NCBI RefSeq assembly: GCF_028207065.1
Contig: NZ_JAQLFP010000010.1
Location: forward strand, 21,965-68,896
Source: Collinsella aerofaciens
GTDB taxonomy: Bacteria; Actinomycetota; Coriobacteriia; Coriobacteriales; Coriobacteriaceae
Direction of reading: 5' to 3'
Length of the DNA: 46,932 nt
The translations under genes were made by a program, and so were the position numbers. A model generated the notes under the pieces. The model saw nothing but the letters and a program-made list of their open reading frames with translations, searched no databases and was not told the origin of the DNA. Of this stretch, positions 1 to 30,948 are shown in pieces (the stretch's first letter is position 1; each line of letters starts with the position of its first letter).

Positions 1-1035
1 TTAGTAGTTCATCTGGTGGTAGTAGCGACGCGTGGTGAGCGGGTGGTTGCGGACGTGCTCGAGATGGCAGCTCAGGCGCTCGGTGATGGTGTAGGTGACC
101 ATCGGGGAGACGATCTTGCGGAACTCGGGGTCGCTGAACGGCAGCTCGACCTCGGCGGTGTCGAACTTGTTCACGCGGACATGGACGCCCTTCTCGTCGG
201 CGAGCATGTGAGTGAAGTTGTCCACGCGGTCCATGAGCTTACGGGTGTCGTCCTCGCCGTAGAGCATGATGAGGCTCGTGCCCTCCTCGCACAGCTCGAT
301 GGTGCCGTGGAAGAACTCGGCGGCGTGGATGGACTTGGTCTTGATCCACTGCATCTCCTCGAGGATGCACATGGCGTAGTCGTAGGCCTCGCCCCAGAGC
401 ATGCCGGAGCCGATCACCATGTGGTAGTCGGTGTCCTTGAAGTCCTCGGCCATGGCGGCGCAGCGCTCGTCCTGGGCGTCCTTGGCCTTGATGAGGTACG
501 GGGCGATGTTGCCGAACTCCTCCATGAAGGTGTCGTACTTGGGGAAGGCGCCGGCGTTCTTGAGGAAGCGGGCGACCAGCGTGATCTGGTAGGTGTAGAT
601 GGCCTCGCACAGGACGTCGTCCTCGGCGAAGCTGAAGAACTTGTAGTCGGCGTACTCGGTGGCCGGGGTGTTGTCGTTGGAGACATACATCAGCGTGCGG
701 GCGCCCTGCTCCTGGCAGAACTTGGCGGCCTCGATGATCTCGGGGGTGGTGCCGGTACGGGTGGAGAAGACGCAGACCGAGTCCTTGTTGAAGGCCTTGG
801 GCGGGCACGCGAGGAACTCAGCGGCGATCTCGCAGTGGACGTCGACGTCGGCCGTGGTGGTCTCGACCCAATACTTCATCGGGAGCGTGTGGGCCCAGGT
901 GCCGCCGCAGCCGATGAAGAAGATGTTGGAATAACCCTGCTCGCAGACCTCGTCCACGGCAGCCTCAATCTGAGGACGGAGAGCGAGGGCATCGCTCACA
1001 ACCTTCTCGTAACGAGGCTCATCGAAATTGAACAT
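1..1035 (-). CDS. SIS-domain sugar-phosphate deglycase, FrlB/FraB-like (copy A of a duplicated gene)
   Basis: A 344-residue SIS-domain protein, probably a cytoplasmic deglycase that splits a 6-phosphorylated glycated amine into hexose phosphate and amine. The first SIS fold starts at about residue 34 (IFFIGCGGT) and has the Ser/Thr-rich phosphate loop STRTGTT near 91-97. E227 (EEMQW) and H243 (EFFHG) are 16 residues apart, the spacing I recall for the catalytic Glu/His of FraB. The C-terminus RRYYHQMNY resembles the FrlB tail. The ATG at 1035 is chosen because the near-identical second copy starts there; an in-frame start at 1083 lies in sequence the copies do not share. The stop codon is the first base triplet of the window, so nothing downstream is visible. 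It lies downstream of the kinase gene, about 98 bp away, and may have its own promoter. The exact substrate is unknown. Confidence 0.88.
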   Translation of the reverse strand: MFNFDEPRYEKVVSDALALRPQIEAAVDEVCEQGYSNIFFIGCGGTWAHTLPMKYWVETTTADVDVHCEIAAEFLACPPKAFNKDSVCVFSTRTGTTPEIIEAAKFCQEQGARTLMYVSNDNTPATEYADYKFFSFAEDDVLCEAIYTYQITLVARFLKNAGAFPKYDTFMEEFGNIAPYLIKAKDAQDERCAAMAEDFKDTDYHMVIGSGMLWGEAYDYAMCILEEMQWIKTKSIHAAEFFHGTIELCEEGTSLIMLYGEDDTRKLMDRVDNFTHMLADEKGVHVRVNKFDTAEVELPFSDPEFRKIVSPMVTYTITERLSCHLEHVRNHPLTTRRYYHQMNY

Positions 1036-1133
1036 ATCTAATATCCCTTCGTTTAATAGAGTGAAATTCGTTTCAATTGACAACTTGTCATTTCACTACG
1101 TATTAATACTTAATGACCTAAAAAAATACCTTT

Positions 1134-2018
1134 CTAGGAAATGGAAGCTTGGCCGTCTTTCATCTCGGCGAGTTTATGCTCGAATCCAAAGCCGCCGGGT
1201 TTAAGGCAATTCTTAGCTGAATAGTCAGCAGCGAATTCCATTGCATCCCGAATGATCTCCGCATCGAGCGGTTGCTTTTTACTCCAGCCATGCGAGAGAC
1301 AGCTCACAACAAACGCAGCGATATACGAATCTCCCGCGCCCATGGTGTCAAGCGCATCTACGGGTCTTATATTTCCCTGGTACCATCGGGAACCGTCAAA
1401 GAACACAGGCCCTGCAGATCCCCGTGTAGCAATCGTGTAGCGACAACCATGCTCTATGGCCCTCTTCAATAGAACTTGAATCTGTTGATCGCTCTCGCCG
1501 GAACAGGAAAACAGACCAAGGGTTGTAGCAGGGCAAACAAGATCGAAATATGCGTCGGTTCGATACTTATCTTTAACGGAAAAGTCGTAAACCACCACAG
1601 CGGGAAGATCTTGAACTAGGTGCACATCATCCTGCAGCTTTGCATTGACGCTGGTAAAAACCGCATCGAATCCCTGAAGAAACTTGACATCAGAATCGTT
1701 GATATGGGTTTTGTGCGCCCAGCAAGCCCCCGTATCGTAACCAACTTCGACACGTTCACCGTTGTAAACATTTACATCGCAAGTCTTGGTTGTTGCTTTT
1801 TCAGGCATGCATGATTGCGAAAGGTCAACGTTCAGCGAAGAAAGGGCATCGGTGATTATTCGCCCTCCCAGGTCGTTGCCGATCTCCCCAATATACGCAG
1901 CCTGTGCGCCAAGCATGCTTGCATGGGCAGCGACGTTTACGGCATTGCCACCAGGATACATAACGCCTTTGTTGAGATAGCGATCAATAACGTTGTCACC
2001 AATTGCTGCGATTTTCAC
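1134..2018 (-). CDS. frlD: PfkB-family carbohydrate kinase, fructoselysine 6-kinase (FrlD)-like
   Basis: Ribokinase/PfkB-family kinase of 294 residues that would phosphorylate a sugar or glycated amino acid at the 6-position in the cytoplasm. The N-terminal KIAAIGDN, the PGGNAVNVA substrate/dimer motif near residues 22-30 and the C-terminal DTMGAGDS motif (catalytic Asp at about 230) are the PfkB signatures, and the wording of all three is closest to FrlD. I chose the GTG at 2018 because GGGAGG sits 7 nt upstream and FrlD proteins begin at the equivalent point; ATG at 2033 and GTG at 2036 have no ribosome-binding site. It follows the SIS gene by 30 bp, so it is the next operon member after PTS and deglycase. 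The pairing of a kinase with a phosphorylating PTS is unusual. Another sugar specificity is possible. Confidence 0.82.
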   Translation of the reverse strand: MKIAAIGDNVIDRYLNKGVMYPGGNAVNVAAHASMLGAQAAYIGEIGNDLGGRIITDALSSLNVDLSQSCMPEKATTKTCDVNVYNGERVEVGYDTGACWAHKTHINDSDVKFLQGFDAVFTSVNAKLQDDVHLVQDLPAVVVYDFSVKDKYRTDAYFDLVCPATTLGLFSCSGESDQQIQVLLKRAIEHGCRYTIATRGSAGPVFFDGSRWYQGNIRPVDALDTMGAGDSYIAAFVVSCLSHGWSKKQPLDAEIIRDAMEFAADYSAKNCLKPGGFGFEHKLAEMKDGQASIS

Positions 2019-2048
2019 CTCAACGCCTCCCATCACGTACGGTCTTTA

Positions 2049-3047
2049 TTAGTACTCGACCTTGCGGTAATAACGGCGGATGTCGAGCGAATGGTCACGA
2101 ATTTCCTCGAAATTCTTGCTCACACGCGAGAGAATGGCATTGAGCACCACCGGAGAAAGCATCCAGCGGAATTCATCACTGATACCCGGCAACTCATAAT
2201 CATGTGTATCGAATACGGTGAAATCATCCGCATATTGCTTACAGAAGCGTGCAACGCGCTCATCAAGAGGCCTAGTCTGCGCCTCCGTCATTGCGAGCGC
2301 GACGCAAACGCCCGGCTCAACAAGTTCGATAGTGCCATGGAAGAACTCAGGCGATGTAACGGATTTGGTGCGCAGCCATTGGGACTCCTCGAGCACGCAC
2401 ATGGCAAACGAATACGTGGGGCCCCACAGATTGCCAGAACCAATCCAAATCTGATACGGATCGTCCTTGTGCTTCAGAGCATATGCGCGAGCCATCTCGT
2501 CAGCGTTCTTGCCGACGGAAACGAGAGCAGCGGGGAGATTCACAAGCTCATCAGCGAAGCGATCGTAGTCATCGAAAAAGCCCCTGTTCTTGAGAATCTT
2601 TCCAATCAGAAGGTACAGCACGAGCTCCATAGGACGACCCTGCTTATAGATCACTCCATAATCGGAAAGTTCACCAAGCGGTGAACCGTCCACGCCAAGC
2701 GTAGAGACAATGGTGCAGCCTGCGTCTTTTGCCGCCTTTGCCGCCGCGACCGTCTCTTTGGTGTCGCCCGACTTGGACGCCATGAACGCCAAGGTCCCCT
2801 TACCGATGCGCCGATTGCCAACCGTGAGGAAATCTGCCGAAACTTGGGACTGGACGGGAATATCGGACATAACAGAAACCATATAGTCAAACGGCTGCAT
2901 CATCGCAAGCGAGCCACCTGACGAGGTGAAGAAAATCGAATCGAAACCCTTTTCGCAAATTTCGTCAGCAATGCGTTCAATTTCGGCACGTTGATTGTAG
3001 ATATAAGCACCGTTATCGAGAATTGCCTGTTCATCAAATGAAACCAT
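2049..3047 (-). CDS. SIS-domain deglycase, FrlB-like, in the PTS operon
   Basis: A 332-residue SIS protein, likely a fructoselysine-6-phosphate deglycase or close relative, giving glucose 6-phosphate plus an amine. The phosphate loop SKSGDT is at 91-96. E221 (EESQW) and H237 (EFFHG) keep the 16-residue spacing seen in all SIS proteins of this window, and the tail DIRRYYRKVEY resembles the FrlB C-terminus. It is a clear paralogue of the duplicated SIS gene on either side (same EFFHGTIEL block) but far from identical and more AT-rich. The ATG at 3047 has AAAGG 9 nt upstream. It lies 48 bp after the EIID gene and 30 bp before the kinase gene, so PTS uptake, deglycation and phosphorylation appear to be co-expressed. 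The amine specificity cannot be read from sequence. Confidence 0.87.
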   Translation of the reverse strand: MVSFDEQAILDNGAYIYNQRAEIERIADEICEKGFDSIFFTSSGGSLAMMQPFDYMVSVMSDIPVQSQVSADFLTVGNRRIGKGTLAFMASKSGDTKETVAAAKAAKDAGCTIVSTLGVDGSPLGELSDYGVIYKQGRPMELVLYLLIGKILKNRGFFDDYDRFADELVNLPAALVSVGKNADEMARAYALKHKDDPYQIWIGSGNLWGPTYSFAMCVLEESQWLRTKSVTSPEFFHGTIELVEPGVCVALAMTEAQTRPLDERVARFCKQYADDFTVFDTHDYELPGISDEFRWMLSPVVLNAILSRVSKNFEEIRDHSLDIRRYYRKVEY

Positions 3048-3095
3048 GAGATATACCTTTCTAATTCAATTGGGCCAGACGGCGAAATCAACCAT

Positions 3096-5644: not shown

Positions 5645-5662
5645 GTTAATAGAACGTTATAT
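5645..5662 (-). promoter_or_regulatory. Operator-like site ATATAACGTTCTATTAAC
   Basis: On the minus strand the sequence ATATAACGTTCTATTAAC lies between the predicted promoter and the EIIA gene. It contains the TATAACGT half-site that recurs upstream of the duplicated SIS gene (8781), the GntR pair (7331), the second PTS (27401), the EamA gene (28702) and the GntR at 21334. A GntR repressor site just downstream of the transcription start is the likely meaning; this is inferred from position and repetition. Confidence 0.5.
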
Positions 5663-6544: not shown

Positions 6545-7333
6545 CTATTGCTTTCTACACTCAACGGCTTCAAGTCCCCGCCAATTGATGCCGAGTTGAT
6601 TAGCCTTAATCGAAAAGAAGTATTTGAAATAATCACCCAACATCACCTGCTTAGTAAAGTGCACTGGCTTACCAGTGCTCATATAAACGGTCTCACTCAA
6701 TATAAACATCGCAGCTTCTCCTGCGATATTAAGGATGCGCTTCTCCTCATCCGTAGCAAGCCCTGCTTCAAGCACAATAGACGGGAAACAATTATCCTCT
6801 AGTCGCAGCCCCGTCTCTCTCTCAATCGTTTCATAAAGTGATGCATTCTCCATATCGACACCCAGTAAAAACCCGAAGTTCTTTACTGGAAGATAAATAT
6901 GTTCAATCATTGCATTTATGTGGTTAATTGACCTCACGCGTTTGAGGTAAACCGCAGATTCATTCTCTTCCATTCGCAAATGACGACGGACGGCAACGGG
7001 CGGCTCGACCTCCTGAAGAGCGAGAACACGAGACGAGGTTTCGATATTATTTTCATGGCAAAAATAAGTGAAACCCTTAAACGTGCTCAAGCTCGAGACG
7101 ATTTTAGGCTGCCGGATAAATGTGCCCTTGCCATGACGCGTATCAAGCACGTCGTCATCCACAAGAGTTTGAATTGCCTTCCGTATCGTCGCACGGCTAA
7201 CCTCGTATTCTTCGCAAAAACCATTTTCGCTAGGCAACACGCCACTTTCGGAAAACTCGCCCATCTCAATACGACGGCGCAAATCATCAGCTACTTGTAC
7301 ATATAGCGGCACAGCACTAGTCGGGTTAATCAT
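6545..7333 (-). CDS. GntR-family (HutC subfamily) transcriptional regulator
   Basis: A 262-residue winged-helix/UTRA regulator. The DNA-binding domain covers residues 1-75 (YEVSRATIRKAIQTL, then GKGTFI) and the rest is a UTRA domain with a longer C-terminal tail than usual. It resembles the following GntR gene only in family features, so the pair looks like two specificities and not a fresh duplication. The ATG at 7333 follows GGAGAACGTT; the operator-like ATAACGTT overlaps this start, suggesting autoregulation. Confidence 0.9.
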   Translation of the reverse strand: MINPTSAVPLYVQVADDLRRRIEMGEFSESGVLPSENGFCEEYEVSRATIRKAIQTLVDDDVLDTRHGKGTFIRQPKIVSSLSTFKGFTYFCHENNIETSSRVLALQEVEPPVAVRRHLRMEENESAVYLKRVRSINHINAMIEHIYLPVKNFGFLLGVDMENASLYETIERETGLRLEDNCFPSIVLEAGLATDEEKRILNIAGEAAMFILSETVYMSTGKPVHFTKQVMLGDYFKYFFSIKANQLGINWRGLEAVECRKQ

Positions 7334-7385
7334 AACGTTCTCCGTATAACATTCTATGAAACTTCTATACGTTATAAGATAACCT
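7331..7385. promoter_or_regulatory. Operator/promoter region with repeated ACGTTATA-type half-sites
   Basis: The 55 bp upstream of the GntR pair contain CATAACGTT (7331-7339), GTATAACATTC (about 7344) and ATACGTTATAAG (about 7369). These are variants of the same half-site found before the PTS and SIS genes. The density of sites overlapping the start codon fits an autoregulated promoter. Confidence 0.45.
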
Positions 7386-7705: not shown

Positions 7706-8740
7706 TTAGTAGTTCATCTGGTGGTAGTAGCGACGCGTGGTGAGCGGGTGGTTGCGGACGTGCTCGAGATGGCAGCTCAGGCGCTCGGTGATGGTGTAGG
7801 TGACCATCGGGGAGACGATCTTGCGGAACTCGGGGTCGCTGAACGGCAGCTCGACCTCGGCGGTGTCGAACTTGTTCACGCGGACATGGACGCCCTTCTC
7901 GTCGGCGAGCATGTGAGTGAAGTTGTCCACGCGGTCCATGAGCTTACGGGTGTCGTCCTCGCCGTAGAGCATGATGAGGCTCGTGCCCTCCTCGCACAGC
8001 TCGATGGTGCCGTGGAAGAACTCGGCGGCGTGGATGGACTTGGTCTTGATCCACTGCATCTCCTCGAGGATGCACATGGCGTAGTCGTAGGCCTCGCCCC
8101 AGAGCATGCCGGAGCCGATCACCATGTGGTAGTCGGTGTCCTTGAAGTCCTCGGCCATGGCGGCGCAGCGCTCGTCCTGGGCGTCCTTGGCCTTGATGAG
8201 GTACGGGGCGATGTTGCCGAACTCCTCCATGAAGGTGTCGTACTTGGGGAAGGCGCCGGCGTTCTTGAGGAAGCGGGCGACCAGCGTGATCTGGTAGGTG
8301 TAGATGGCCTCGCACAGGACGTCGTCCTCGGCGAAGCTGAAGAACTTGTAGTCGGCGTACTCGGTGGCCGGGGTGTTGTCGTTGGAGACATACATCAGCG
8401 TGCGGGCGCCCTGCTCCTGGCAGAACTTGGCGGCCTCGATGATCTCGGGGGTGGTGCCGGTACGGGTGGAGAAGACGCAGACCGAGTCCTTGTTGAAGGC
8501 CTTGGGCGGGCACGCGAGGAACTCAGCGGCGATCTCGCAGTGGACGTCGACGTCGGCCGTGGTGGTCTCGACCCAATACTTCATCGGGAGCGTGTGGGCC
8601 CAGGTGCCGCCGCAGCCGATGAAGAAGATGTTGGAATAACCCTGCTCGCAGACCTCGTCCACGGCAGCCTCAATCTGAGGACGGAGAGCGAGGGCCTCGC
8701 TCACAACCTTCTCGTAACGAGGCTCATCGAAATTGAACAT
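7706..8740 (-). CDS. SIS-domain sugar-phosphate deglycase, FrlB/FraB-like (copy B)
   Basis: Second copy of the 1035-bp gene at the left edge, 344 residues with the same SIS folds, phosphate loop and E227/H243 pair. I see only one base difference between the copies: residue 15 is Glu here and Asp in copy A (C at 8696, A at 991). Identity stops exactly at the start codon and the upstream regions are unrelated in sequence, so the copies are under separate promoters. This copy has a clear promoter (TTGCAT/TATTAT) with an operator-like ATAACGTTATAATAC, and its own downstream hairpin, so it is monocistronic. The ATG at 8740 has a weak upstream AGGAGTAAGGG. GC content is visibly higher than in the PTS and kinase genes lying between the copies. 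Confidence 0.9.
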   Translation of the reverse strand: MFNFDEPRYEKVVSEALALRPQIEAAVDEVCEQGYSNIFFIGCGGTWAHTLPMKYWVETTTADVDVHCEIAAEFLACPPKAFNKDSVCVFSTRTGTTPEIIEAAKFCQEQGARTLMYVSNDNTPATEYADYKFFSFAEDDVLCEAIYTYQITLVARFLKNAGAFPKYDTFMEEFGNIAPYLIKAKDAQDERCAAMAEDFKDTDYHMVIGSGMLWGEAYDYAMCILEEMQWIKTKSIHAAEFFHGTIELCEEGTSLIMLYGEDDTRKLMDRVDNFTHMLADEKGVHVRVNKFDTAEVELPFSDPEFRKIVSPMVTYTITERLSCHLEHVRNHPLTTRRYYHQMNY

Positions 8741-8780: not shown

Positions 8781-8818
8781 CCATAACGTTATAATACTTT
8801 ATATAACTAACTATGCAA
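8781..8818 (-). promoter_or_regulatory. Promoter and overlapping operator-like site of SIS copy B
   Basis: On the minus strand TTGCAT (8813-8818) and TATTAT (8791-8796) are separated by 16 bp. The -10 box merges into TATTATAACGTTATGG, containing the TATAACGT half-site shared with other loci. Just downstream, GATGAAC/GTTCATC (8762-8780) can form a small hairpin in the leader. Confidence 0.55.
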
Positions 8819-17405: not shown

Positions 17406-17490
17406 GTTCTATGTTGTTCTATTTATAGCATGCAAGCAGGTGCCCGTGAAGTCATTTCAGCAAATTTGTTCTATGTTGTTCTATCTATGG
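17406..17490. promoter_or_regulatory. Tandem GTTCTAT operator-like repeats
   Basis: GTTCTATGTTGTTCTAT occurs twice, at 17406-17422 and 17468-17484, each followed by a TATAG/TATGG-like tail. The two units are 62 bp apart, about six helical turns. They fill the gap between the GntR and SIS genes and are the obvious candidate sites for that GntR. Confidence 0.6.
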
Positions 17491-22801: not shown

Positions 22802-23431
22802 CTACAGAGCGGCCAAAATGTCGGTCAGGTTGTCGATGACGACGTCGGCGGCGGACTGGTCCAGGTTGACGCCCTCATGCGGACGCAGTGCCAGGACGCG
22901 GGCGCCGGAGCGCTTGCCAGCCTCGATGCCCAACGGCGAGTCCTCGATAACCAGGCACTCGGCGGGGTCAACTCCCAGCGTCTCCATGGCACGCAGGTAG
23001 ATCTCGGGGTCGGGCTTAAACGCACTGCACTCGTGACCGCTGATGGTGTAGTCCAGCACGTCGGCGATACCGGCAATCTCAACCAGCTCGTCGATGAGCT
23101 CGCGGTAGGACGAGCTCGCGATGGCACACTTCACGCCGCGTTCGTGCAGTTCGCGCATCACCGGCTCCGTCTGCTCGTTGAGCAGCTCGGCATACGGAAC
23201 GGGGTGGACCGGGCTGTAGACCTGCTTGTACTCCACACGCAGGCGCTCGCGCAGCTCGACATCGTCGGGCACCAGCGCCTCCCAAATGGCAGGCTCGTTA
23301 GACCCCGAAAGATCGGGAATCTCGTCAAAGTGGAAGCCCTTCTCCTCCATAAACGCCACGCGGCGACGGTTGTAGAACCACTCGGTATCGACCAGCACGC
23401 CGTCCATATCAAACAGCACTGCCTTGATCAT
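22802..23431 (-). CDS. HAD-superfamily phosphatase / beta-phosphoglucomutase-like
   Basis: A 209-residue HAD subfamily IA hydrolase. The nucleophile motif DMDGVLVDTE is at 8-17, motif II in IASSSYR, and motif IV VIEDSPLGIEAG near 164-175, with a helical cap between. Such enzymes dephosphorylate or isomerise sugar phosphates; the DMDGVL-DTE form is typical of phosphatase/phosphoglucomutase types. The ATG at 23431 has GGAGGAG 6 nt upstream. The leader repeat shared with the formyl-THF ligase gene lies directly upstream. It follows the SIS deglycase but a terminator separates them, so a link to that pathway is only possible. Confidence 0.87.
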   Translation of the reverse strand: MIKAVLFDMDGVLVDTEWFYNRRRVAFMEEKGFHFDEIPDLSGSNEPAIWEALVPDDVELRERLRVEYKQVYSPVHPVPYAELLNEQTEPVMRELHERGVKCAIASSSYRELIDELVEIAGIADVLDYTISGHECSAFKPDPEIYLRAMETLGVDPAECLVIEDSPLGIEAGKRSGARVLALRPHEGVNLDQSAADVVIDNLTDILAAL

Positions 23432-23442
23432 ACGCATCTCCT

Positions 23443-23490
23443 CCCACCTGCCAAAAAGAGACAGGTTTATTTTGGTAGGTTTTATCTGGG
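23443..23490 (-). repeat. ~50-bp leader repeat upstream of the HAD gene
   Basis: Minus-strand sequence starting CCCAGATAAAACCTACC, aligned over about 50 nt with 13431-13480 with only a few substitutions and in the same position relative to the next gene's ribosome-binding site. Confidence 0.65.
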
Positions 23491-23526
23491 GTTTTGCGGC
23501 GCAACGAACACGCCCTCCCAAAACAG

Positions 23527-23556
23527 AAAAGGGGACGGGGTGTAAACCCCATCCCC
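23527..23556 (-). terminator. Terminator of the SIS gene / second PTS operon
   Basis: GGGGACGGGGT and ACCCCATCCCC (one mismatch) form an 11-bp stem with a GTAA loop; on the minus strand it runs into TTTTCTG, 35 bp after the SIS stop codon. Confidence 0.7.
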
Positions 23557-23590
23557 TCTCAATCAACCCGTAAGGTCTACTTACTTGTGA

Positions 23591-24574
23591 TTAGTAGGAA
23601 AGCTTCCACATGTAGCGACGCATGGTCAGCGGGTGCTGACGGGCCTCGGCGATCTGGTTGCCGTACTCGCGCATAACGGCGAGGTGCAGCAGCGGGTTGA
23701 AGTAGGTGACGACGCTCGCCGGCACGGCGTCAGCCAGGCCGTAGTCCTTGGAGTCGATCAGAGCGACCTTGGCGCCCATGCGCTTAAGGAAGGTGAGGGC
23801 GCGAGCGTCCATCGGACGGGTAGCACCGTCGGACATGAAGAAGACGTAGGGCTTACCCTCGGTGGAAACCTCGAACGGGCCGTGGAAGTACTCGCCGGTG
23901 TTGTAGGCGGCGGCGTCGATCCACTGCATCTCGGTGAACAGGAAGGCGGCGTGAGAATAAGCCATCTTCTCGGAGGCACCGGAGGCCATGAAGTAGATCA
24001 TCTTGTCGTCCTTGAAGTCTTGGGCGAACTGCTTGGCGAGGCCCTTGGCGGACTGAGCGGCGTTCTCGCAGAGCTCGAAGACGTTGGTGAGGCCGGTGAT
24101 CATGTCCTCGTAGTGGTCATAGCCCTCGGTCTGCTGAAGGATCTCGAGAGCAAGAGCGATGGCGTAGCCAGGCTTCTCGCACTTGGCAGCGTAGTTGGCA
24201 TGGAAGCCGTGAACGATGACGTGGTCGGCGTCGACGGTCAGAGCGGAGCCGGCCTTGTTGGTGAGGGAGACGACCGGGCAGTTGTGCTTCTTGGCGGTCT
24301 TGTTGGCCTCGACGGTCTCGGGCGTGGAGCCACCGAGGGAGCAGGTGATCACGAAGGTGTGCTCGTTGACCCAGGAAGGCGTGTCGTAGTTGAACTCGTT
24401 AGCGGTGAAGATCTGAACGTTCAGCTTGTCCGTGTTGTTGGCCAGGAAGTACTTGGCAGGGTAAAGGTCGGACATGGAAGCACCGCAGCCGACGAAGGCG
24501 ACGCTGTGGATCTCGTGGTTGGACAGGACGTCAGCGACGATCTGCTTAGGGAGGTTAAGGTCGATCTCGTACAT
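23591..24574 (-). CDS. SIS-domain deglycase, FrlB-like, of the second PTS locus
   Basis: A 327-residue SIS protein with a phosphate loop at 79-84 (SLGGST) and the pair E215 (TEMQW) and H231 (GEYFHGPFE), 16 residues apart. The tail MRRYMWKLSY is shared with the SIS protein at 29028. It probably splits the phosphorylated substrate delivered by the PTS directly upstream. I prefer the ATG at 24574: AAAGGA lies 9 nt before it, whereas it touches the ATG at 24583. A 198-bp gap with a palindrome separates it from the EIID gene; no clear promoter is visible there, so read-through or processing is possible. Confidence 0.87.
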   Translation of the reverse strand: MYEIDLNLPKQIVADVLSNHEIHSVAFVGCGASMSDLYPAKYFLANNTDKLNVQIFTANEFNYDTPSWVNEHTFVITCSLGGSTPETVEANKTAKKHNCPVVSLTNKAGSALTVDADHVIVHGFHANYAAKCEKPGYAIALALEILQQTEGYDHYEDMITGLTNVFELCENAAQSAKGLAKQFAQDFKDDKMIYFMASGASEKMAYSHAAFLFTEMQWIDAAAYNTGEYFHGPFEVSTEGKPYVFFMSDGATRPMDARALTFLKRMGAKVALIDSKDYGLADAVPASVVTYFNPLLHLAVMREYGNQIAEARQHPLTMRRYMWKLSY

Positions 24575-24665
24575 CTGACACATTCCTTTCGATTTTTTGC
24601 GGCGCCACATTGCCGGGCGCTCGCAGGGTTACCGTGGTTTGGACCGAGTCGCCGGCCCGTTGAGG

Positions 24666-24772: not shown

Positions 24773-25606
24773 CTAGGCCAGGATGCCGGCCGCGGAGAGG
24801 GCGATGCCGCCCACGATGGCGATCACGAGAAGCCAACCGGTGTTGACGTTCTTCTTGATGAGCCAGTACATAAGGCCGGTGAGGCCGAGGGAGATCATCT
24901 GGGGCATCATGCCGTCCAGGATGTCCTGAATCACGACGGTGCCCTCAGCGAACTGCAGCGGGGTGGTGGCGCCGATCAGCGTAGCGATCATGCCGCCCAC
25001 GGACATAAGACCCACGATGCCGCAGACATACATGAGCTTCTCCATGAGGTCGCCGCCCTGGAGCTTGCTCAGGTACTCGTGGCCGCCCTGATAGCCGATC
25101 TTGGCTGCGAACCACGTGATCAGCACAGAGGGCACGATGGAGATGAGCATGGCCAGGATCGGGCCCATGATGGAGCCCTGCTGAGCCAGCTGAACACCCA
25201 GGCCAAAGGCGATAACGCGGATGGTGCCCTGGAAGAAGGAGTCACCGATGCCGGAAAGCGGACCCATAAGGGAGGTCTTGACCGCGTTGATCGAATCGGG
25301 GTCGAAGTTCTCGGGATCCTTGGCGTACTCTTCCTCCATGGAGGCGGCGAGGCCCAGGATGAAAGCGCTCGTCTGCGGGGTGCAGTTGTAGAACGCCATG
25401 TGACGGTGGTAAGCCTCTTTCTTAGCAGCGAGCTGCTTGGGGTCGGACTCGTCCGGATAGAGGCGATCGAGCGTGGGAACCATGCCGTAGAGGAAGCCCA
25501 TGTTCATCTGACGCTCGTAGTTCCAAGAGGCCTGGATGGCCCAGGAGCGCCAGAAGAACTGGCTGACCTTCTTGTTCAGGGACACGTCCTTGGTTGCGGT
25601 TGCCAT
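24773..25606 (-). CDS. PTS mannose/fructose/sorbose-family EIID component
   Basis: EIID membrane subunit (277 residues) with the family blocks SWNYERQMNMGFLYGMVP, RHMAFYNCTPQT, MGPLSGIGDSFFQGTIR and C-terminal helices ending AGILA. The ATG at 25606 follows AGGAGGAACAC; the longer frame to 25723 lies inside the EIIC gene and lacks a ribosome-binding site. It is 13 bp downstream of the EIIC gene. Codon use is strongly GC-rich, unlike the EIID gene of the first locus. Confidence 0.94.
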   Translation of the reverse strand: MATATKDVSLNKKVSQFFWRSWAIQASWNYERQMNMGFLYGMVPTLDRLYPDESDPKQLAAKKEAYHRHMAFYNCTPQTSAFILGLAASMEEEYAKDPENFDPDSINAVKTSLMGPLSGIGDSFFQGTIRVIAFGLGVQLAQQGSIMGPILAMLISIVPSVLITWFAAKIGYQGGHEYLSKLQGGDLMEKLMYVCGIVGLMSVGGMIATLIGATTPLQFAEGTVVIQDILDGMMPQMISLGLTGLMYWLIKKNVNTGWLLVIAIVGGIALSAAGILA

Positions 25607-25619
25607 AGTGTGTTCCTCC

Positions 25620-26414
25620 TTAGTCTTCGTCGTCTTCGAGCGGATCGTAGTCGGAATCGACACCGGCGGCTGCATGGGAACCGTTGAACTTGAAGCCCAT
25701 GAAGACGACAGCCAGGCACACACCGATCAGAGCGACCGCGATGACGGACAGGTTGAGGTAAGCGGCGAGCAGGAAACCGATGAACAGGAACGGAGTCATA
25801 CCCTTCTTGATCATCATGGTGAGCAGCAGGGCCAAACCGTAGGCGGTCATGATCTTGGTCGAAACGTTAAGACCAGTGGACAGCCACTCGGGAACCATGT
25901 TGACGATGGCCTGAACCAGGTCGGTGCCAACAAAGACGGCGAGGAAGATCGGCAGGAAGTACATGACGGCGTACAGACCGGAGCCGGCGCAGATGTGCAT
26001 GCGATAGGCGGTCTTGAACTTTCCGTTATCGATCGCGCTATCTGCCACATGGGTGAGGGCGGCGATGATGGAACGGAACACGATGCCGAGGAGCTGACCC
26101 AGGACGGCGACCGGGATGGCGATCGTCATGGCGGTCTCGGCGGAAGCATCGGTCAGGCACGCAAAGGCAGCGGCCACGATGCCGCCCAGGACCATATCGG
26201 GCGGAACGGCGGCGCCGACCTGCACCAGGCCCATGGACACGAGCTCGACGGCGGCACCGACGGCAAGGCCGGTGGGCACATCGCCCAGCAGCAGACCGAC
26301 GAGCGTAGCGCCAACGAGGGGCTGCTCGAAGTTAAGACGACCGAGCAGGCGGGAGTCCCACATGCAGAACACGCCGACGAGGCCGACGAGCACCGCACTG
26401 ATGAACGTATTCAT
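25620..26414 (-). CDS. PTS mannose/fructose/sorbose-family EIIC component
   Basis: EIIC membrane subunit (264 residues) with the GAAVPPDMVLGGIVAAAFAC motif near residues 88-107 and about seven hydrophobic helices. It ends in an acidic DYDPLEDDED tail, like the other EIIC here. The ATG at 26414 follows AGGAGAAGGGT. It lies 36 bp after the EIIAB gene and 13 bp before EIID. Confidence 0.94.
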   Translation of the reverse strand: MNTFISAVLVGLVGVFCMWDSRLLGRLNFEQPLVGATLVGLLLGDVPTGLAVGAAVELVSMGLVQVGAAVPPDMVLGGIVAAAFACLTDASAETAMTIAIPVAVLGQLLGIVFRSIIAALTHVADSAIDNGKFKTAYRMHICAGSGLYAVMYFLPIFLAVFVGTDLVQAIVNMVPEWLSTGLNVSTKIMTAYGLALLLTMMIKKGMTPFLFIGFLLAAYLNLSVIAVALIGVCLAVVFMGFKFNGSHAAAGVDSDYDPLEDDED

Positions 26415-26450: not shown

Positions 26451-27374
26451 TTACAGCTTGGCGTCGATGTCGACGCTCTGATACGTAGGGGTCTGCTGGA
26501 CATAGAGCTTAATGCCCATGTCGAGCAGCTGGTTGACGTCGGCCTTCTGGGTGGCGTCGAAGAAGACGGAGCTGTCCTTGCCGCCGACCTGTTCGGCACC
26601 GTCGTGGTTGGCGGTGGCGCCCAGGTTGATGGCGTCGAGCTTGTAGCCCTGGCAGAACTGCAGCATCTCGGCAGTGTTGCCAAAGACGAACATGACGCGC
26701 TCGCCGAGGGTGTTGAGCTTGTCCATCTTGGCGAGGGCACGCTCGACGGTGAAGACGTTCAGGCGCACGCCCTGGGGCTTGGCCAGCTTAAGAGCGCCCT
26801 TCTTGATGTCATCGTTGGCGGCAGCGTTGTCGACGACGATGATGCGCTCGGCCTGAACCTTGGTGGTCCAGGTAAAGACGACCTGGCCGTGCAGCAGACG
26901 GTAGTCAAGACGTGCGAGGACGATCTTGGCGGGACCGGAGCTGTGACGGGACGCCTTGGCCTTCTTGGCGGGAGCCGCGGCGACCTCGACCGGTGCGTTG
27001 GGGTTGGTCAGACCGGTGCGGGCCTCGTTGATGAGGGCCGCGAGCTCGGCACCCTTGACGGGGGCGGGGCTCATAGCGAGCGTCAGTGCCAGCGGAATGT
27101 TGAAACCGCTGACAACCGTGAACTTCGTGCCGTTCTTGGAAAGCTCGACCATGCTGTTGTTGACCGAGCTGCCGAGCATATCGGTCAGCACATAGACGGT
27201 GTCGTCCGCGTTGAACGTGGCGATCATGGCGTCCACCTTATTGGTGATGGGCTCCTTGTCGTCACGAGCAAGCGACACGACGTGGACGTTCGACACGTCG
27301 CCGAGAACCATCTCGAGCGTGTCTTTGGCGCCTGCGGCCAGGCCGCCATGAGATGCGAGAATGATCTGATTCAT
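26451..27374 (-). CDS. PTS mannose-family EIIAB fusion protein
   Basis: A 307-residue cytoplasmic protein made of EIIA (residues 1 to about 125; phospho-His9 in ILASHGGLA; LTDMLGSSVNNS near 63-74), an Ala/Pro/Lys-rich linker (about 126-148) and EIIB (149-307; phospho-His162 in RLDYRLLHGQV). This is the ManX-like arrangement, in contrast to the separate EIIA and EIIB of the first locus. GGAGGAGGCAAG precedes the ATG at 27374. It is the first gene of the operon and its promoter overlaps a TATAACGT-type site. Confidence 0.95.
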   Translation of the reverse strand: MNQIILASHGGLAAGAKDTLEMVLGDVSNVHVVSLARDDKEPITNKVDAMIATFNADDTVYVLTDMLGSSVNNSMVELSKNGTKFTVVSGFNIPLALTLAMSPAPVKGAELAALINEARTGLTNPNAPVEVAAAPAKKAKASRHSSGPAKIVLARLDYRLLHGQVVFTWTTKVQAERIIVVDNAAANDDIKKGALKLAKPQGVRLNVFTVERALAKMDKLNTLGERVMFVFGNTAEMLQFCQGYKLDAINLGATANHDGAEQVGGKDSSVFFDATQKADVNQLLDMGIKLYVQQTPTYQSVDIDAKL

Positions 27375-27400: not shown

Positions 27401-27424
27401 ATTATAACGTCTTATACGTTGCTT
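27401..27424 (-). promoter_or_regulatory. Promoter -10 and operator-like site of the second PTS operon
   Basis: The minus strand has a perfect TATAAT (27401-27406) about 27 bp before the start codon. It overlaps ATTATAACGTCTTATACGTT (27401-27420, plus strand), two tandem copies of the half-site seen at other SIS/PTS promoters. No good -35 box is visible. Confidence 0.55.
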
Positions 27425-27578: not shown

Positions 27579-28661
27579 CTATCGCACGAAGTACCAGGGG
27601 CTTTCCTGCACGGTGGGCTCCAGCGTAATGCCCGTGCGCTCGCGGAACAGATCCATGTCCTGCGATTTCTCCGTCCACCACGCGTTGGGCTTAAAGGTCA
27701 TGCTCTCAATGACATGGTCGACAAACACACTGTTGCGCAGCTTGGAAAAGTCGGTGTTCATGATCACGATGGACGCGAGCACCAAAACGATGCCCAGAAC
27801 CTTGATCGTACCGGCGGGCTCGGCGTAGACACCAATGCCCAGCAGCACGGTGACGACCGTCTCGAATGACATTACGACGGGAACTTTCGACGTCTCGAGC
27901 CCCATGGACAGACCCTGCATATATAAGACATAGGCCACGGCTGTGGGGATGAGTCCAAAGCCAAGGAACAGCAGCAGCAGCTGTGGCGACATTGCTGCGG
28001 CGACATCTGGCCACGGAGCCGCGATAGCCGCCATAACCGCACCGCCAAAAACAAGGCCCCAAAACGTGACAGCCAGCGGGTGGACCGTCTTGGTTGCTAT
28101 CCGGCTAAACACCGCGAGCGACGCGCCACAAAAGCCCGCAATCACGCCCGACGTGACGCCCCAAACCGAAAAATGAAAACCGGAAAGGTCGCCATCGGTC
28201 ACTGCAAGTACACAGCCACCGATGTTAAAAGCGATGGCAACGAGCTTGTTGGGAGTCACATCCTCGCGATAAAGTACGCGACCGAGCATGACGCCAAACA
28301 CCGGCGAGGTGTAAAGCAGCACCGAGGCCGTGGACATGCCCACCTCGCCCATGCACTCGTAATAAAGCGTGTTAGCGGTGGCGAGGCCGATAATGCCAAG
28401 AAGCGCACAAGGAACAAGCTCTTTAGGACTTGCCTTGAACAGTGCCAGGGGACCCGATGCCTTTCCCTCACGAGCACCTCCCTGGCAACCCATGAATGCC
28501 AAGACCGGAGCCATTAAGACGGCACCCGACAACAAGCGAAAGGCAGCCATACTCTGGGACGTAACGCCCATGGCCGAGATGCCGTTTACAAAGATTCCGA
28601 TGCTGCCCCACATGAGCGCGGCGATCAGCACCAGCACATAGCCCAGATTGCTTTTCTTCAA
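27579..28661 (-). CDS. EamA/DMT-family transporter (probable metabolite exporter)
   Basis: Inner-membrane protein of about 360 residues with ten hydrophobic helices in two EamA repeats (first GYVLVLIAALMWGSIGIFVNG, second starting near FSVWGVTSGVIAGFCG). It has an unusual soluble C-terminal extension of about 60 residues after the last helix. The frame is open to a GTG at 28697, but GAGGAGG lies 5-6 nt before a TTG at 28661, which I take as the start. DMT proteins often export amino acids. Its promoter has the operator-like motif shared with the PTS loci, so it may export an amino acid freed from glycated substrates; that role is inference. Confidence 0.82.
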   Translation of the reverse strand: MKKSNLGYVLVLIAALMWGSIGIFVNGISAMGVTSQSMAAFRLLSGAVLMAPVLAFMGCQGGAREGKASGPLALFKASPKELVPCALLGIIGLATANTLYYECMGEVGMSTASVLLYTSPVFGVMLGRVLYREDVTPNKLVAIAFNIGGCVLAVTDGDLSGFHFSVWGVTSGVIAGFCGASLAVFSRIATKTVHPLAVTFWGLVFGGAVMAAIAAPWPDVAAAMSPQLLLLFLGFGLIPTAVAYVLYMQGLSMGLETSKVPVVMSFETVVTVLLGIGVYAEPAGTIKVLGIVLVLASIVIMNTDFSKLRNSVFVDHVIESMTFKPNAWWTEKSQDMDLFRERTGITLEPTVQESPWYFVR

Positions 28662-28701
28662 CGCAGCCTCCTCGGTATTGTTTCCAATATGTTTCACACT
28701 A

Positions 28702-28717
28702 CGTTATAGTCGTTATA
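28702..28717. promoter_or_regulatory. Tandem CGTTATA operator-like site
   Basis: CGTTATA occurs at 28702-28708 and 28711-28717, about 40 bp upstream of the preferred EamA start. It is the same half-site as at 5645, 7369, 8781, 21370 and 27401. Confidence 0.5.
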
Positions 28718-28880: not shown

Positions 28881-29028
28881 GTCAGCGAGCGCCCGTCATT
28901 TGAGCCAAGGTGCCGTGAGATGAAAAGGCGCTGACCTTCTGGTCGCGCCTTTGAAATTGAACGGCAGATTGGCCAAATGCCGGGCGCGCAGCGTCGAGCC
29001 GTTACGCCGTTCGGTAGAACGGCGTAAC
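28881..29028. repeat. Structured repeat, copy 2 (candidate structured RNA or complex REP)
   Basis: Same plan as 20421-20614: GTCAGCGA, outer stem (28889-28902 with 28974-28987, one mismatch), AAGG, middle stem TGCCGT/ACGGCA (28911-28916 with 28961-28966), inner stem AAAGGCGC/GCGCCTTT (28924-28952), GATT, then GCAGCGTCG and a 12-bp hairpin (29001-29028) that touches the stop codon of the SIS gene. Stem bases differ from copy 1 but stay paired. Confidence 0.65.
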
Positions 29029-30020
29029 TAGTAGTCCAGCTTCCACATGTAGCGGCGCGTCATGTAGTCCTTGTGAGTGACGGCAGAAAGCGCGCGCATA
29101 TACACGTTGTTGAGGATCGGCGCAAAGATCAGGTGGTTGAAGTATTCGCTCACGCTGTCCTTGATGTCGTTGAGGCCGAGCTCCTTGGCGTCGAGCTGAT
29201 AGACGCGCTCGCCACCGTACTGGTTGACGAAGCGGATGCCGCGCTCGTCGTTGCAGCGGCTGCGGCCGACGCTGATGAGCTGGAACAGCGAAGTGCGCTT
29301 GTCCAGGATCTCGAAGGGGCCGTGGAAGAAGTCACAGGTGTTGATGGTGCAGGAGTCGATCTGCAGCATCTCCTGCACGTTGCAGATGCTAAAGACGTAG
29401 GCGGCACCAAAGAGCGGACCCTGAGCCATGACGTTGATGCAGGGCTTGTCGGCGTTCTGCTCGGCCCACTTGGCGGCGAGCGGACGGGTGTACTCGACGG
29501 CCTTGCGATAGATGGGGTCAACCAGGTCGAAGGCGGCCATAGCGGTCTCGTACTCGGCATAGCCCTCGGTCTGCTGCGTGAGTTCCATGGCGATCATGGT
29601 CACGACGGCGGAGTTGGTACGGCCCATGCAGGACTCGTCGACGGCCAGGCTGTCATACTGGATCTTGTAGTCGCAGACCTCGGTGAGGCCGGACTCGTCA
29701 ACATAGATGGCGATGGTACTGGCGCCGTGGTCCTTGGCGACCTGGGCGGCGACGATGGTCTCCTTGGTGCCGCGCATGGACACGACGACGGCCAGGGTGT
29801 TCTCGTTAACGTAGGCGGGGGTTGCGTGCACGAACTCGTTGCTGGTGTAGCTGGAGCTCACGACCTGCGTGGCCTCGTGCTCCATAAAGTACTGGGCAGG
29901 ATAGTTGCCGCCGTTGGATCCGCCGGCGCCAATCCACACGACGCGCTTGATGCCGCCCTTGTCTGCCTTGTCAGCCAAAACCTGGGAGACGACATCCTTA
30001 ACCTGTTCCTGAGTAGTCAT
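29028..30020 (-). CDS. SIS-domain deglycase, FrlB-like, divergent from GntR
   Basis: A 330-residue SIS protein. The phosphate loop is SMRGTK (81-86). E217 (QEMLQ) and H233 (CDFFHGPFE) keep the 16-residue spacing, but the usual Trp three residues after the Glu is Gln and the Glu three before the His is Asp, so substrate or kinetics may differ. The tail MTRRYMWKLDY matches the SIS protein at 23591. No transporter is adjacent. Start at ATG 30020; transcription diverges from the GntR gene across a 205-bp gap with two matching operator-like repeats. Confidence 0.87.
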   Translation of the reverse strand: MTTQEQVKDVVSQVLADKADKGGIKRVVWIGAGGSNGGNYPAQYFMEHEATQVVSSSYTSNEFVHATPAYVNENTLAVVVSMRGTKETIVAAQVAKDHGASTIAIYVDESGLTEVCDYKIQYDSLAVDESCMGRTNSAVVTMIAMELTQQTEGYAEYETAMAAFDLVDPIYRKAVEYTRPLAAKWAEQNADKPCINVMAQGPLFGAAYVFSICNVQEMLQIDSCTINTCDFFHGPFEILDKRTSLFQLISVGRSRCNDERGIRFVNQYGGERVYQLDAKELGLNDIKDSVSEYFNHLIFAPILNNVYMRALSAVTHKDYMTRRYMWKLDY

Positions 30021-30058
30021 CGTGCATCAGCCTTTCTTCTCGTTTGATGCTCTCGATG

Positions 30059-30219
30059 GCATACAAGTTACATACATGTTTTGGCTATGTCGACTAGTTG
30101 TATGCTATATTTGTCTTAGAAATTATGCTGGTAAGGTTTTCGATGACTCGTTACCAGCAGTTTTATTGTTGTATTGGATACATGCTTGATTAGGCAAGCA
30201 TACAAGTTAGATACAGGTT
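30059..30219. promoter_or_regulatory. Divergent regulatory region with repeated GCATACAAGTTA sites
   Basis: GCATACAAGTTACATACA (30059-30076) and GCATACAAGTTAGATACA (30198-30215) are direct repeats at the two ends of the region; AGTTGTATGC near 30096 is an inverted half-site. One copy lies near the SIS start, the other overlaps the GntR ribosome-binding region, so one repressor could control both genes. Confidence 0.6.
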
Positions 30220-30225
30220 AGTCGT

Positions 30226-30948
30226 ATGAGCGCTTCATCTAAAAAGAAACTGACCCAATACGAGCGTCTGGCGAGCACGCTGCGCGACCGCATCGCCGCC
30301 GGCACCTACGCCCGTGGAGACAAGCTGCCGTCCGAGATGGAGCTCATGGACGAATCGGGGCTGTCGCGCAGCACCGTGCGCCACGCCCTTAAGGTGCTCG
30401 TCGATGAGGGCCTGCTTCGCACCGAGCGCGGGCGCGGTGCCTTTGTGGCCGACACGCCGGCGCTCCACGAGAACAACCTGGTGTTTTCGAGCTACACGGC
30501 ACAGGTACAGGGTCAGGGCATGAAGCCCACCACGCGTACCGTGGACTCGGGCTTTGCCAAGGCAACGGGCAGCGTGGCCAAGTTCTTTGACGCTACCGTG
30601 GGCAGCAAGCTCGTCAAACTTGTCCGTCTGCGTTATCTGGACGATGCGCCACTGTGCCTGGAGACCACCTATTTGCCGCCAAGCTTTGGATCGCTCATCG
30701 ATCGCGATATCAACGGTTCGCTCTACGCCACGCTGCGCCAAGAATTCCATCGCGCGCCGGCACAGGGGCATAAGACCTTTGAGGTGTGCTATGCCTCGCA
30801 AAACGAGGCGTTTTTGCTCAACGTTGAGCGTGGGCAGGCGCTGATCTTGATCACTGACTACGTCTACGACACCGACGGCCGCCCGCTCCATGTCTCCAAG
30901 CGCATCCAACGCACCGACCGCGCCAAATACACCGAGCCCATCGGCTAA
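30226..30948 (+). CDS. GntR-family (HutC subfamily) transcriptional regulator
   Basis: A 240-residue regulator with the winged-helix domain at about 9-76 (QYERLASTLRDRIAAG, SGLSRSTVRHALKVL, GRGAFV) and a UTRA domain after it. It is the only GntR of the window on the plus strand and diverges from the SIS deglycase gene, the usual layout for a regulator and its target. The ATG at 30226 has a weak ribosome-binding site (AGGTTAG). A REP-like palindrome begins at its stop codon. Confidence 0.9.
   Translation: MSASSKKKLTQYERLASTLRDRIAAGTYARGDKLPSEMELMDESGLSRSTVRHALKVLVDEGLLRTERGRGAFVADTPALHENNLVFSSYTAQVQGQGMKPTTRTVDSGFAKATGSVAKFFDATVGSKLVKLVRLRYLDDAPLCLETTYLPPSFGSLIDRDINGSLYATLRQEFHRAPAQGHKTFEVCYASQNEAFLLNVERGQALILITDYVYDTDGRPLHVSKRIQRTDRAKYTEPIG

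What the first reader, a model, noticed from the sequence alone, without database searches (positions are those of the whole stretch)
1..30948. Six FrlB/FraB-like SIS deglycases with two PTSs and five GntR regulators in 31 kb: a glycated-amine catabolic hub
Genes at 1, 2049, 7706, 16381, 23591 and 29028 all encode SIS proteins of 322-344 residues. Each has a Glu and a His exactly 16 residues apart (E227/H243, E221/H237, E211/H227, E215/H231, E217/H233), the spacing I recall for Glu214/His230 of FraB. The genes are diverged except for one pair, so they probably handle different substrates. Two mannose-family PTSs and a FrlD-like kinase supply phosphorylated substrates. The sequence supports the family calls; glycated amino acids as substrates are inferred from FrlB/Gfr/Fra precedents and from reports of fructoselysine use by Collinsella.
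Basis: partly seen in the sequence, partly recalled or inferred. Interest (0 to 1): 0.85.

Follow-up and report, generated by a model that had tools for sequence, protein, structure and literature searches.

The report
Sugar-amine deglycase cluster in Collinsella
A gut bacterium carries an unusually large set of genes for breaking down sugar-bound amino acids such as those in cooked food, and two of these genes are almost identical and bracket an operon that was spliced into an older one.

Summary
Six SIS-domain genes lie in 31 kb with two mannose-family PTSs, five GntR-UTRA regulators and a FrlD-like kinase. A tree places three SIS proteins with GfrF and three with B. subtilis FrlB and FraB, apart from GlmS and AgaS. 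Substrates remain inferred. The family is rare in the phylum sample (11 of 296 genomes, all in this order) but reaches eight genes per genome in this genus. New here is the history. SIS1 and SIS3 differ at 1 of 1035 bases, and identity starts exactly at the ATG. The nearest genome has the same layout: 2 differences inside it, 13-14 against the window, 12 sites fixed between genomes in both copies, i.e. concerted evolution. The copies are the two halves of a resident operon split at its deglycase gene by an inserted operon. That operon combines PTS entry with a kinase-deglycase pair, was exchanged recently (dS 0-0.03 for frlD to GntR1, most other genes 0.2-0.28), and is rare. New variant of a known kind.

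The parts
1..1035 (-). SIS1: GfrF-clade deglycase-like protein, 344 aa from the ATG; one copy of the near-identical pair
   Evidence: Pfam SIS 41.8 bits; tree with GfrF 96/99; 1034/1035 to SIS3
1134..2036 (-). FrlD-like PfkB kinase
   Evidence: NCBIfam fructoselysine 6-kinase 147.7 bits, cut-off 247; GAGDS motif present
2049..3047 (-). SIS2: GfrF-clade deglycase-like protein paired with the kinase
   Evidence: PDB 2a3n 2e-77; tree; SIS2-frlD adjacency also in L018, L019, L024 and L115
3096..3968 (-). PTS1 EIID, mannose family
   Evidence: Pfam EIID-AGA 360 bits
3913..4698 (-). PTS1 EIIC
   Evidence: Pfam EII-Sor 256 bits
4726..5187 (-). PTS1 EIIB
   Evidence: Pfam PTSIIB_sorb 160.8 bits
5201..5617 (-). 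PTS1 EIIA
   Evidence: Pfam EIIA-man 44 bits
5832..6536 (-). GntR-UTRA regulator 1
6545..7333 (-). GntR-UTRA regulator 2, tandem with regulator 1
7706..8740 (-). SIS3: other copy of the near-identical pair
   Evidence: PDB 8glr 1.4e-56; 87 bp upstream in G001 match the resident operon, and so do those in the window
16381..17349 (-). SIS4: FrlB/FraB-clade deglycase-like protein
   Evidence: PDB 3eua 2e-54; tree; homologue at E 1e-90 or better in 24 of 43 genus genomes
17494..18249 (-). GntR-UTRA regulator 3, next to SIS4
17406..17422 (-). Predicted operator ATAGAACAACATAGAAC, first of two
   Evidence: 2 sites in the window, shuffles give none (pattern chosen from these sites); found in G001 and L079-L082 with at most one change
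17468..17484 (-). Predicted operator ATAGAACAACATAGAAC, second of two
20615..21334 (-). GntR-UTRA regulator 4
22802..23566 (-). HAD phosphatase / beta-phosphoglucomutase-like protein beside SIS5
   Evidence: Pfam HAD; a HAD gene also sits by SIS-PTS loci on two E. faecium plasmids
23591..24610 (-). SIS5: FraB-clade deglycase-like protein (probable start at 24574)
   Evidence: PDB 9otj 2e-72; tree with E. faecium L073 100/99; homologue in 27 of 43 genus genomes
24773..25723 (-). PTS2 EIID
25620..26414 (-). PTS2 EIIC
26451..27374 (-). PTS2 fused EIIAB
27579..28697 (-). EamA-family transporter, possible amine or amino-acid exporter
   Evidence: Pfam EamA; NCBIfam 2A78 below cut-off
29028..30020 (-). 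SIS6: FraB-related subfamily with a shortened phosphate-loop motif S-M-R-G-T
   Evidence: PDB 9otj 5.5e-65; short S-M-x-G-T form in 116 of the 120 homologues listed out of 1108 found; homologue in 24 of 43 genus genomes
30226..30948 (+). GntR-UTRA regulator 5, divergent from SIS6
30059..30076 (-). Predicted operator TGTATSTAACTTGTATGC, first of two
   Evidence: 2 sites in the window, shuffles give none (pattern chosen from these sites); found in G001 and L087-L090 with at most one change
30198..30215 (-). Predicted operator TGTATSTAACTTGTATGC, second of two
5654..5661 (-). TATAACGT site upstream of EIIA1 (weak operator call)
   Evidence: 6 sites in the window, 0.40 expected; all six also in G001; but 40 against 29 reversed-control sites in the whole of G001
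7369..7376 (-). TATAACGT site upstream of GntR2
8786..8793 (-). TATAACGT site upstream of SIS3
   Evidence: also before the resident SIS in L012-L015 and L017
21377..21384 (+). TATAACGT site upstream of GntR4
27403..27410 (+). TATAACGT site upstream of EIIAB2
28701..28708 (-). TATAACGT site at the start of EamA

Best explanation
The stretch is a set of glycated-amine (Amadori/Heyns compound) utilisation units in a Collinsella genome. Inferred mechanism: a mannose-family PTS imports and 6-phosphorylates the compound, or the FrlD-like kinase phosphorylates substrate already inside the cell; a SIS deglycase then splits it into a hexose 6-phosphate and a free amine or amino acid; GntR-UTRA repressors sense the pathway. 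The leftmost unit arose when an operon of type GntR-GntR-IIA-IIB-IIC-IID-deglycase-kinase-deglycase inserted by homologous recombination at the deglycase gene of a resident GntR-IIA-IIB-deglycase-IIC-IID operon, leaving a full deglycase copy at each end. Gene conversion keeps the two copies nearly identical over exactly the coding sequence. The resident operon had probably lost most of IIC and IID before the insertion, because a relative without the insertion has the same deletion. Shown here: family placement, layout, repeat boundaries, the within-genome identity pattern, resident-operon junctions in G001, and recent exchange of the inserted block. Inferred: substrates, enzyme activity, kinase role, operator function, the integration mechanism and the order of events.
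For: Tree: SIS1/2/3 with GfrF (96/99), SIS4/5/6 with B. subtilis FrlB, FraB and STM0572 (94/92), GlmS and AgaS outside both. Best PDB hits of the five searched are deglycase-type chains. The profile separates such proteins from GlmS-length frames (E 1e-103 or better against 1e-22 to 1e-29 in five genomes). Salmonella gfrABCD imports and phosphorylates fructoselysine and glucoselysine, and GfrE and GfrF cleave the products (PMC12675984, passages). SIS1/SIS3: 1 difference in the window, 2 in G001, 13-14 between genomes, 12 sites at which both copies of one genome differ from both of the other and none grouping copies by position; no similarity beyond ATG and TAA in G001. In G001, SIS3 plus 87 bp upstream matches the resident left arm, and SIS1 plus 393 bp downstream the resident right arm. 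The uninterrupted donor-type operon, with the deglycase at its 3' end, is in L018, L019 and L024. dS between window and G001 is 0-0.03 for frlD to GntR1, 0.048 for GntR2, and 0.20-0.28 for nine other genes of the window. SIS2 orthologue in 1 of 43 genus genomes.
Against: No enzyme, substrate or expression data. All six SIS proteins score 60-120 bits on the NCBIfam FrlB equivalog, cut-off 430, and SIS5 scores higher on GlmS models (86.5 against 76.2). E. coli FrlB, the characterised fructoselysine deglycase, falls outside both clades on a long branch. The kinase is below its cut-off (147.7 against 247). SIS6 lacks one residue in the phosphate loop and has EMLQ in place of EMQW. The window ends at the SIS1 stop codon, so the resident right arm is seen only in G001, and homogeneity in the window could be partly an assembly effect (G001, one contig, is free of that doubt). 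The 0.66-kb spacer before SIS3 shows no GntR, IIA or IIB remnant, only weak matches to sequence past the resident IID. The IIC-IID deletion is also in L012, which has one SIS copy and no insertion, so it is not a consequence of the insertion. In a second bracketed locus most pairs are not homogenised.
Confidence: 0.75

Rival explanations
1. The SIS proteins are aminosugar-phosphate isomerases or deaminases (GlmS, NagB-II or AgaS-like) and the PTSs import amino sugars.
For: SIS5 scores higher on GlmS NCBIfam models than on FrlB; PTS IIC and IID score on AgaW/AgaE-type models, below cut-off; Glu/His spacing is shared with GlmS.
Against: Tree places GlmS and AgaS outside both clades; phmmer prefers FraB, FrlB and GfrF chains over GlmS or NagB-II chains by 45 or more orders of magnitude for SIS2, 3, 5 and 6, and for SIS4 no such chain is listed. 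No nagA, nagB or aldolase family was among the Pfam hits of the ORFs scanned.
Confidence: 0.1
2. The near-identical pair is an assembly artefact or a very recent plain duplication without gene conversion.
For: The window starts exactly at the SIS1 stop codon, as a contig broken at a repeat would.
Against: G001, one contig, has both copies with the same boundaries. Twelve differences between the genomes are shared by both copies, which a duplication older than the shared layout cannot give without conversion. The flanks belong to two different operons.
Confidence: 0.05
3. The layout arose by two independent insertions of the same donor operon, one in the window lineage and one in the G001 lineage, each into its own resident deglycase gene.
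For: The block interior is more alike (dS 0-0.03) than the deglycase copies (0.053) and far more than most other genes; SIS3 of the window differs from L012 at 11 bases and from the G001 copies at 14.
Against: The spacer before SIS3 and both inner junctions align through in the two genomes. With only 11 differences to single-copy L012 over 1035 bases, SIS3 shows no donor-like stretch against L018 (117 differences), so homogenisation or a near-identical donor is needed anyway; the true donor is unknown.
Confidence: 0.25
4. SIS6 is not a deglycase of the same kind but a non-catalytic sensor or an enzyme for a differently phosphorylated or unphosphorylated substrate.
For: Shortened phosphate-loop motif in 116 of 120 listed homologues, EMLQ in place of EMQW and CD or CE before FFHG, its own GntR and operator-like sites.
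Against: Catalytic Glu and His kept; 99-100% protein identity in 20 of the 24 genus genomes that carry it and dN/dS 0.016 against G001, so it is under strong constraint.
Confidence: 0.2

Closest known systems
Salmonella gfrABCDEF (fructoselysine/glucoselysine PTS and deglycases)
   Same: Mannose-family IIA, IIB, IIC, IID with a GfrF-clade deglycase in one operon
   Different: Here a FrlD-like kinase is added, there are two GfrF-clade deglycases, and GntR-UTRA regulators head the operon; that Salmonella gfr uses a sigma-54 type activator is recalled, not seen here
Faecalibacterium prausnitzii seven-gene fructoselysine PTS operon (PMC12136445, passages)
   Same: gfrABCDF-like genes plus one gene without a Salmonella gfr homologue, variably present, suggestive of transfer
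   Different: Whether the extra gene is a FrlD-like kinase was not settled here; the passages read do not describe a deglycase-bracketed layout
Salmonella fraBDAE and E. coli frl (kinase plus deglycase)
   Same: SIS2-frlD pair resembles the fraB-kinase pair of a plasmid fra locus and the frl enzymes; SIS5 and SIS6 are nearest the FraB-type chain by phmmer
   Different: Import here is by PTS; no asparaginase or fra/frl-type transporter was among the Pfam hits of the unit
Enterococcus faecium plasmid SIS-PTS loci
   Same: Tandem GntR genes, SIS and IIABCD; SIS5-like gene with PTS and HAD gene; SIS, PTS, HAD and GntR
   Different: One SIS gene in each of the three stretches viewed; carried on conjugative plasmids
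Collinsella intestinalis fructoselysine use (Wolf et al. 2019, recalled; paper not held)
   Same: Same genus; a citing paper says C. intestinalis can degrade dietary AGEs (PMC10255453, passage)

Membership tests
FrlB/FraB/GfrF 6-phospho-glycated-amine deglycases | Groups with characterised deglycases and apart from GlmS and AgaS | tested here: met
   (96/99 with GfrF; 94/92 with B. subtilis FrlB, FraB); E. coli FrlB itself is outside both clades; profile separation from GlmS
FrlB/FraB/GfrF 6-phospho-glycated-amine deglycases | Catalytic Glu and His at FraB positions 214 and 230 | tested here: met
   All six; not diagnostic, since GlmS has the same spacing; that these two residues are the catalysts is recalled
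FrlB/FraB/GfrF 6-phospho-glycated-amine deglycases | Canonical SIS phosphate loop | tested here: inconclusive
   SIS1-5 align without a gap there; SIS6 is one residue shorter, a subfamily trait
FrlB/FraB/GfrF 6-phospho-glycated-amine deglycases | Cleaves a 6-phospho Amadori or Heyns compound | not testable with these tools
   Needs an enzyme assay
FrlB (NCBIfam NF008481 equivalog) | Score at or above 430 bits | tested here: not met
   60-120 bits for all six; none is filed as FrlB itself
FrlD fructoselysine 6-kinase (NCBIfam NF007321) | Score at or above 247 bits | tested here: not met
   147.7 bits, the best model by 90 bits; called FrlD-like only
Gfr-type PTS operon | Mannose-family IIA, IIB, IIC, IID beside a GfrF-clade deglycase | tested here: met
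Gfr-type PTS operon | Separate GfrE-type glucoselysine deglycase | not tested
   No GfrE sequence was obtained

The most novel reading that the evidence does not exclude
In Collinsella, deglycase genes act as portable homology arms. PTS operons for glycated amines are bracketed by a deglycase copy at each end, so whole operons can be swapped into one another, excised or amplified by recombination between the copies, which gene conversion can keep identical. In the case at hand the incoming operon restored a complete PTS to a resident operon that had already lost most of its own IIC and IID. Bracketing the importer also puts a deglycase both first and last, which would hold down the toxic phosphorylated intermediate. 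The inserted operon joins two entry routes, PTS and kinase, in one unit.
Probability: 0.3. Interest if true: 0.65.

Novelty: new variant of a known kind. Interest (0 to 1): 0.5.

Why it matters
Glycated amines are plentiful in heated food, and which gut bacteria clear them, and how, is a live question. This genus stands out: up to eight deglycase-type genes per genome in a phylum where 285 of 296 sampled genomes show none. The SIS6 subfamily is almost invariant in 20 of the 24 genus genomes that carry it and has an altered phosphate loop, so it may act on a substrate not yet known. The bracketed operon is a concrete, testable case of operon exchange by recombination inside a shared gene, followed by concerted evolution, in a natural catabolic locus.

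Tried and rejected
Glu/His spacing as proof of deglycase function was rejected: E. coli GlmS has the same spacing, AgaS 18. A single co-regulated hub was rejected: SIS4 and SIS6 have their own repeated operator-like sites. tRNA and Rfam scans of the window were empty. Remnants of the resident GntR, IIA and IIB in the spacer before SIS3 were sought and not found. My first story, that the resident PTS decayed after the insertion, was dropped: the same 0.93-kb IIC-IID deletion, with the same ends, is in L012, which has one SIS copy and no insertion. General gene conversion across the genus was tested on a second locus (SIS-PTS-SIS): of 10 loci with two complete copies, two (G002, G021) have identical copies and eight differ at 29-219 sites. 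L075 and L105 give the same values and look like one isolate, so that is two of nine distinct. In most of the eight, copy 1 resembles copy 1 of other genomes more than its own partner, so conversion is not universal. SIS2 was sought in two families reached through named Firmicutes loci: at E 1e-125 in 1 of 299 genomes, the centre genome G044 itself, and at E 1e-100 in 1 of 297, a 58% relative. Structure prediction was not run. Paper searches were made; no title or abstract start in their listings describes the bracketed layout, but I read only the passages and the one outline named here, no whole paper. PMC12051030 was searched for FraB residue names without a hit.
Full report
1. What is there. 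Six SIS-domain ORFs lie at the stated places. From right to left the region holds: GntR5 divergent from SIS6; EamA transporter; PTS2 (IIAB, IIC, IID); SIS5; a HAD phosphatase; yitT; GntR4; recQ; GntR3; SIS4; then an LDH-like gene, metA, a folate enzyme gene, hicB and preP; then SIS3, GntR2, GntR1, PTS1 (IIA, IIB, IIC, IID), SIS2, a FrlD-like kinase and SIS1, which ends at base 1. The organism is a Collinsella or very near one: SIS3 relatives in the six loci L012-L017, all titled Collinsella, are 96-99% identical in protein, and those of C. vaginalis and C. tanakaei 89% and 83%.

2. Family. By phmmer against solved structures, SIS2 and SIS3 are nearest 2a3n/8glr, SIS5 and SIS6 nearest 9otj, SIS4 nearest 3eua (SIS1 was not searched, being SIS3's twin). 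That 2a3n is Salmonella GfrF, 3eua B. subtilis FrlB, 3fkj STM0572 and 9otj FraB is recalled; 9otj is 92.6% identical to a Salmonella plasmid gene annotated fraB, and chain 9otu carries Ala at the Glu in question. A maximum-likelihood tree of 20 rows puts SIS1/2/3 with GfrF (96/99) and SIS4/5/6 with B. subtilis FrlB, FraB and STM0572 (94/92); GlmS and AgaS are outside both, and so is E. coli FrlB, on a long branch. Only 5 of 17 inner branches are starred and the root is a midpoint, so finer placement is unsure. The Glu/His pair at FraB 214/230 is present in all six, but also in GlmS with the same spacing. None reaches the NCBIfam FrlB cut-off. [quoted passage not shown]

3. How unusual. A profile of 14 family members separates these proteins (E 1e-103 or better) from GlmS-length frames (1e-22 to 1e-29) in five genomes. 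In the genus, 35 of 43 genomes have at least one at E 1e-60, 14 have five or more, and two have eight (two of the six hits of G018 are pieces of interrupted genes). In a phylum sample, 11 of 296 genomes have any, all in the same order (at most seven candidates per genome were scored there, so G001 shows 7). Homologues of SIS4, SIS5 and SIS6 at E 1e-90 or better are in 24, 27 and 24 of 43 genomes. SIS2 is in 1 of 43.

4. The near-identical pair. In the window SIS1 and SIS3 differ at 1 of 1035 bases, and similarity begins exactly at the ATG; on the stop-codon side the window ends. G001, one contig, has the same layout with copies 7,705 bases apart, differing at 2 bases, with no similarity beyond ATG or TAA. 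Between genomes the copies differ at 13-14 bases. At 12 sites both copies of one genome agree against both copies of the other, and no site groups copies by position. This is the pattern of concerted evolution. Among the listed matches in 43 genus genomes, only G001 has two full-length copies of this gene at 80% DNA identity or more.

5. Origin. Other Collinsella have a single-copy operon GntR-IIA-IIB-SIS-IIC-IID; in L013-L015 it stands at the same place beside preP. Its SIS is 97.6-98.9% identical in DNA to SIS3 in L012-L015 and L041, L043-L046 (some of these are the same genomes). In G001, 87 bp upstream of SIS3 match the stretch before that resident SIS, and 393 bp downstream of SIS1 match the start of the resident right arm; a gap of about 0.93 kb follows, joining IIC to IID. 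So the resident operon was split at its SIS gene. L012, which has one SIS copy and no insertion, carries the same gap with the same ends, so that deletion is not a result of the insertion and probably came first. The inserted part corresponds to a nine-gene operon GntR-GntR-IIA-IIB-IIC-IID-SIS2-kinase-SIS1 found in L018, L019 and, more distantly, in a Lachnospiraceae contig, L024. A single crossover between SIS genes with a circular or tandem donor would give this layout; that step is inference. Between window and G001, dS is 0-0.03 for the genes from frlD to GntR1, 0.048 for GntR2 and 0.053 for SIS1 and SIS3. It is 0.20-0.28 for preP, metA, SIS4, GntR3, recQ, GntR4, yitT, HAD and GntR5. PTS2 and SIS5 are also low (0.04-0.08), SIS6 intermediate (0.16) and EamA high (0.66). 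The inserted block was therefore exchanged recently.

6. A second bracketed locus. Of 13 loci looked at (12 fetched, and L075), 10 have two complete SIS copies flanking another PTS operon. The copies are identical in two (G002, G021) and differ at 29-219 bases in the other eight; outside ATG and TAA the 80 bases compared look unrelated in all ten (L075 and L105 look like one isolate). G003 has one copy, G015 three and G018 interrupted ones; these are outside that count. The PTS genes between the copies were read from annotation in L075 only and are assumed for the rest. Bracketing is thus recurrent, homogenisation occasional.

7. Working model. PTS1 and PTS2 import and phosphorylate; SIS enzymes split the product. 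This follows the gfr system, where gfrABCD imports and phosphorylates and GfrE and GfrF cleave (PMC12675984, passages; one figure legend there gives the two enzymes the other way round). The kinase beside SIS2 resembles the pairing of fraB with its kinase and recurs beside SIS2 relatives. I infer that it phosphorylates substrate that enters without the PTS, for example from glycated peptides cut inside the cell. A reason to keep deglycase in excess exists: a fraB mutant accumulates a toxic phosphorylated intermediate (PMC4941530, abstract).

8. Regulation, predicted only. TATAACGT occurs six times in the window against 0.40 expected (0 of 100 shuffles reach six), each time upstream or at the start of a gene of this set: IIA1, GntR2, SIS3, GntR4, IIAB2, EamA. 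All six are in G001 too. I picked the word by eye from these same regions, and in the whole of G001 it is only modestly commoner than its reversed control (40 against 29), so it is a lead. Two longer words, one twice before SIS4 and one twice between SIS6 and GntR5, are likewise chosen from the sites; shuffles give none, and both recur in relatives.

9. SIS6. Its phosphate loop is one residue shorter, a trait of 116 of the 120 homologues listed out of 1108 found, while Glu and His are kept. It is 99-100% identical in 20 of the 24 genus genomes that have it, with dN/dS 0.016 against G001. A distinct substrate is the likely reason; a lost activity cannot be excluded.

10. Verdict. The family reading is right, the substrate reading is plausible and untested, and the system is a known kind. 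The bracketed, hybrid, recently exchanged operon with concerted deglycase copies is a new variant.

Noticed in passing
L112 (G018), second SIS-PTS-SIS locus, about 2667-4325 and 11610-12911: Both SIS copies are interrupted by inserted sequence at about residue 200.
   Followed up: no
27579-28697: The EamA gene is far more diverged between the window and G001 (dS 0.66) than its neighbours, suggesting replacement by recombination in one lineage.
   Followed up: no
23591-27374: SIS5 and PTS2 have lower dS (0.04-0.08) than most other genes, a second possible recent exchange.
   Followed up: partly
L075 5611-13948: A second Collinsella glycation-type locus has an extra distant SIS protein, an MFS transporter and a sugar-phosphate isomerase/epimerase gene beside the two SIS copies.
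   Followed up: partly
L033 10001-15295: An Oscillospiraceae contig holds five SIS genes of these types in a row.
   Followed up: no
L012 and G001 right arm: The resident IIC-IID deletion is shared, with the same ends, by a genome with and one without the inserted operon.
   Followed up: partly
1: The window begins exactly at the stop codon of SIS1, which is the repeat boundary in G001, as expected if a contig broke there.
   Followed up: partly
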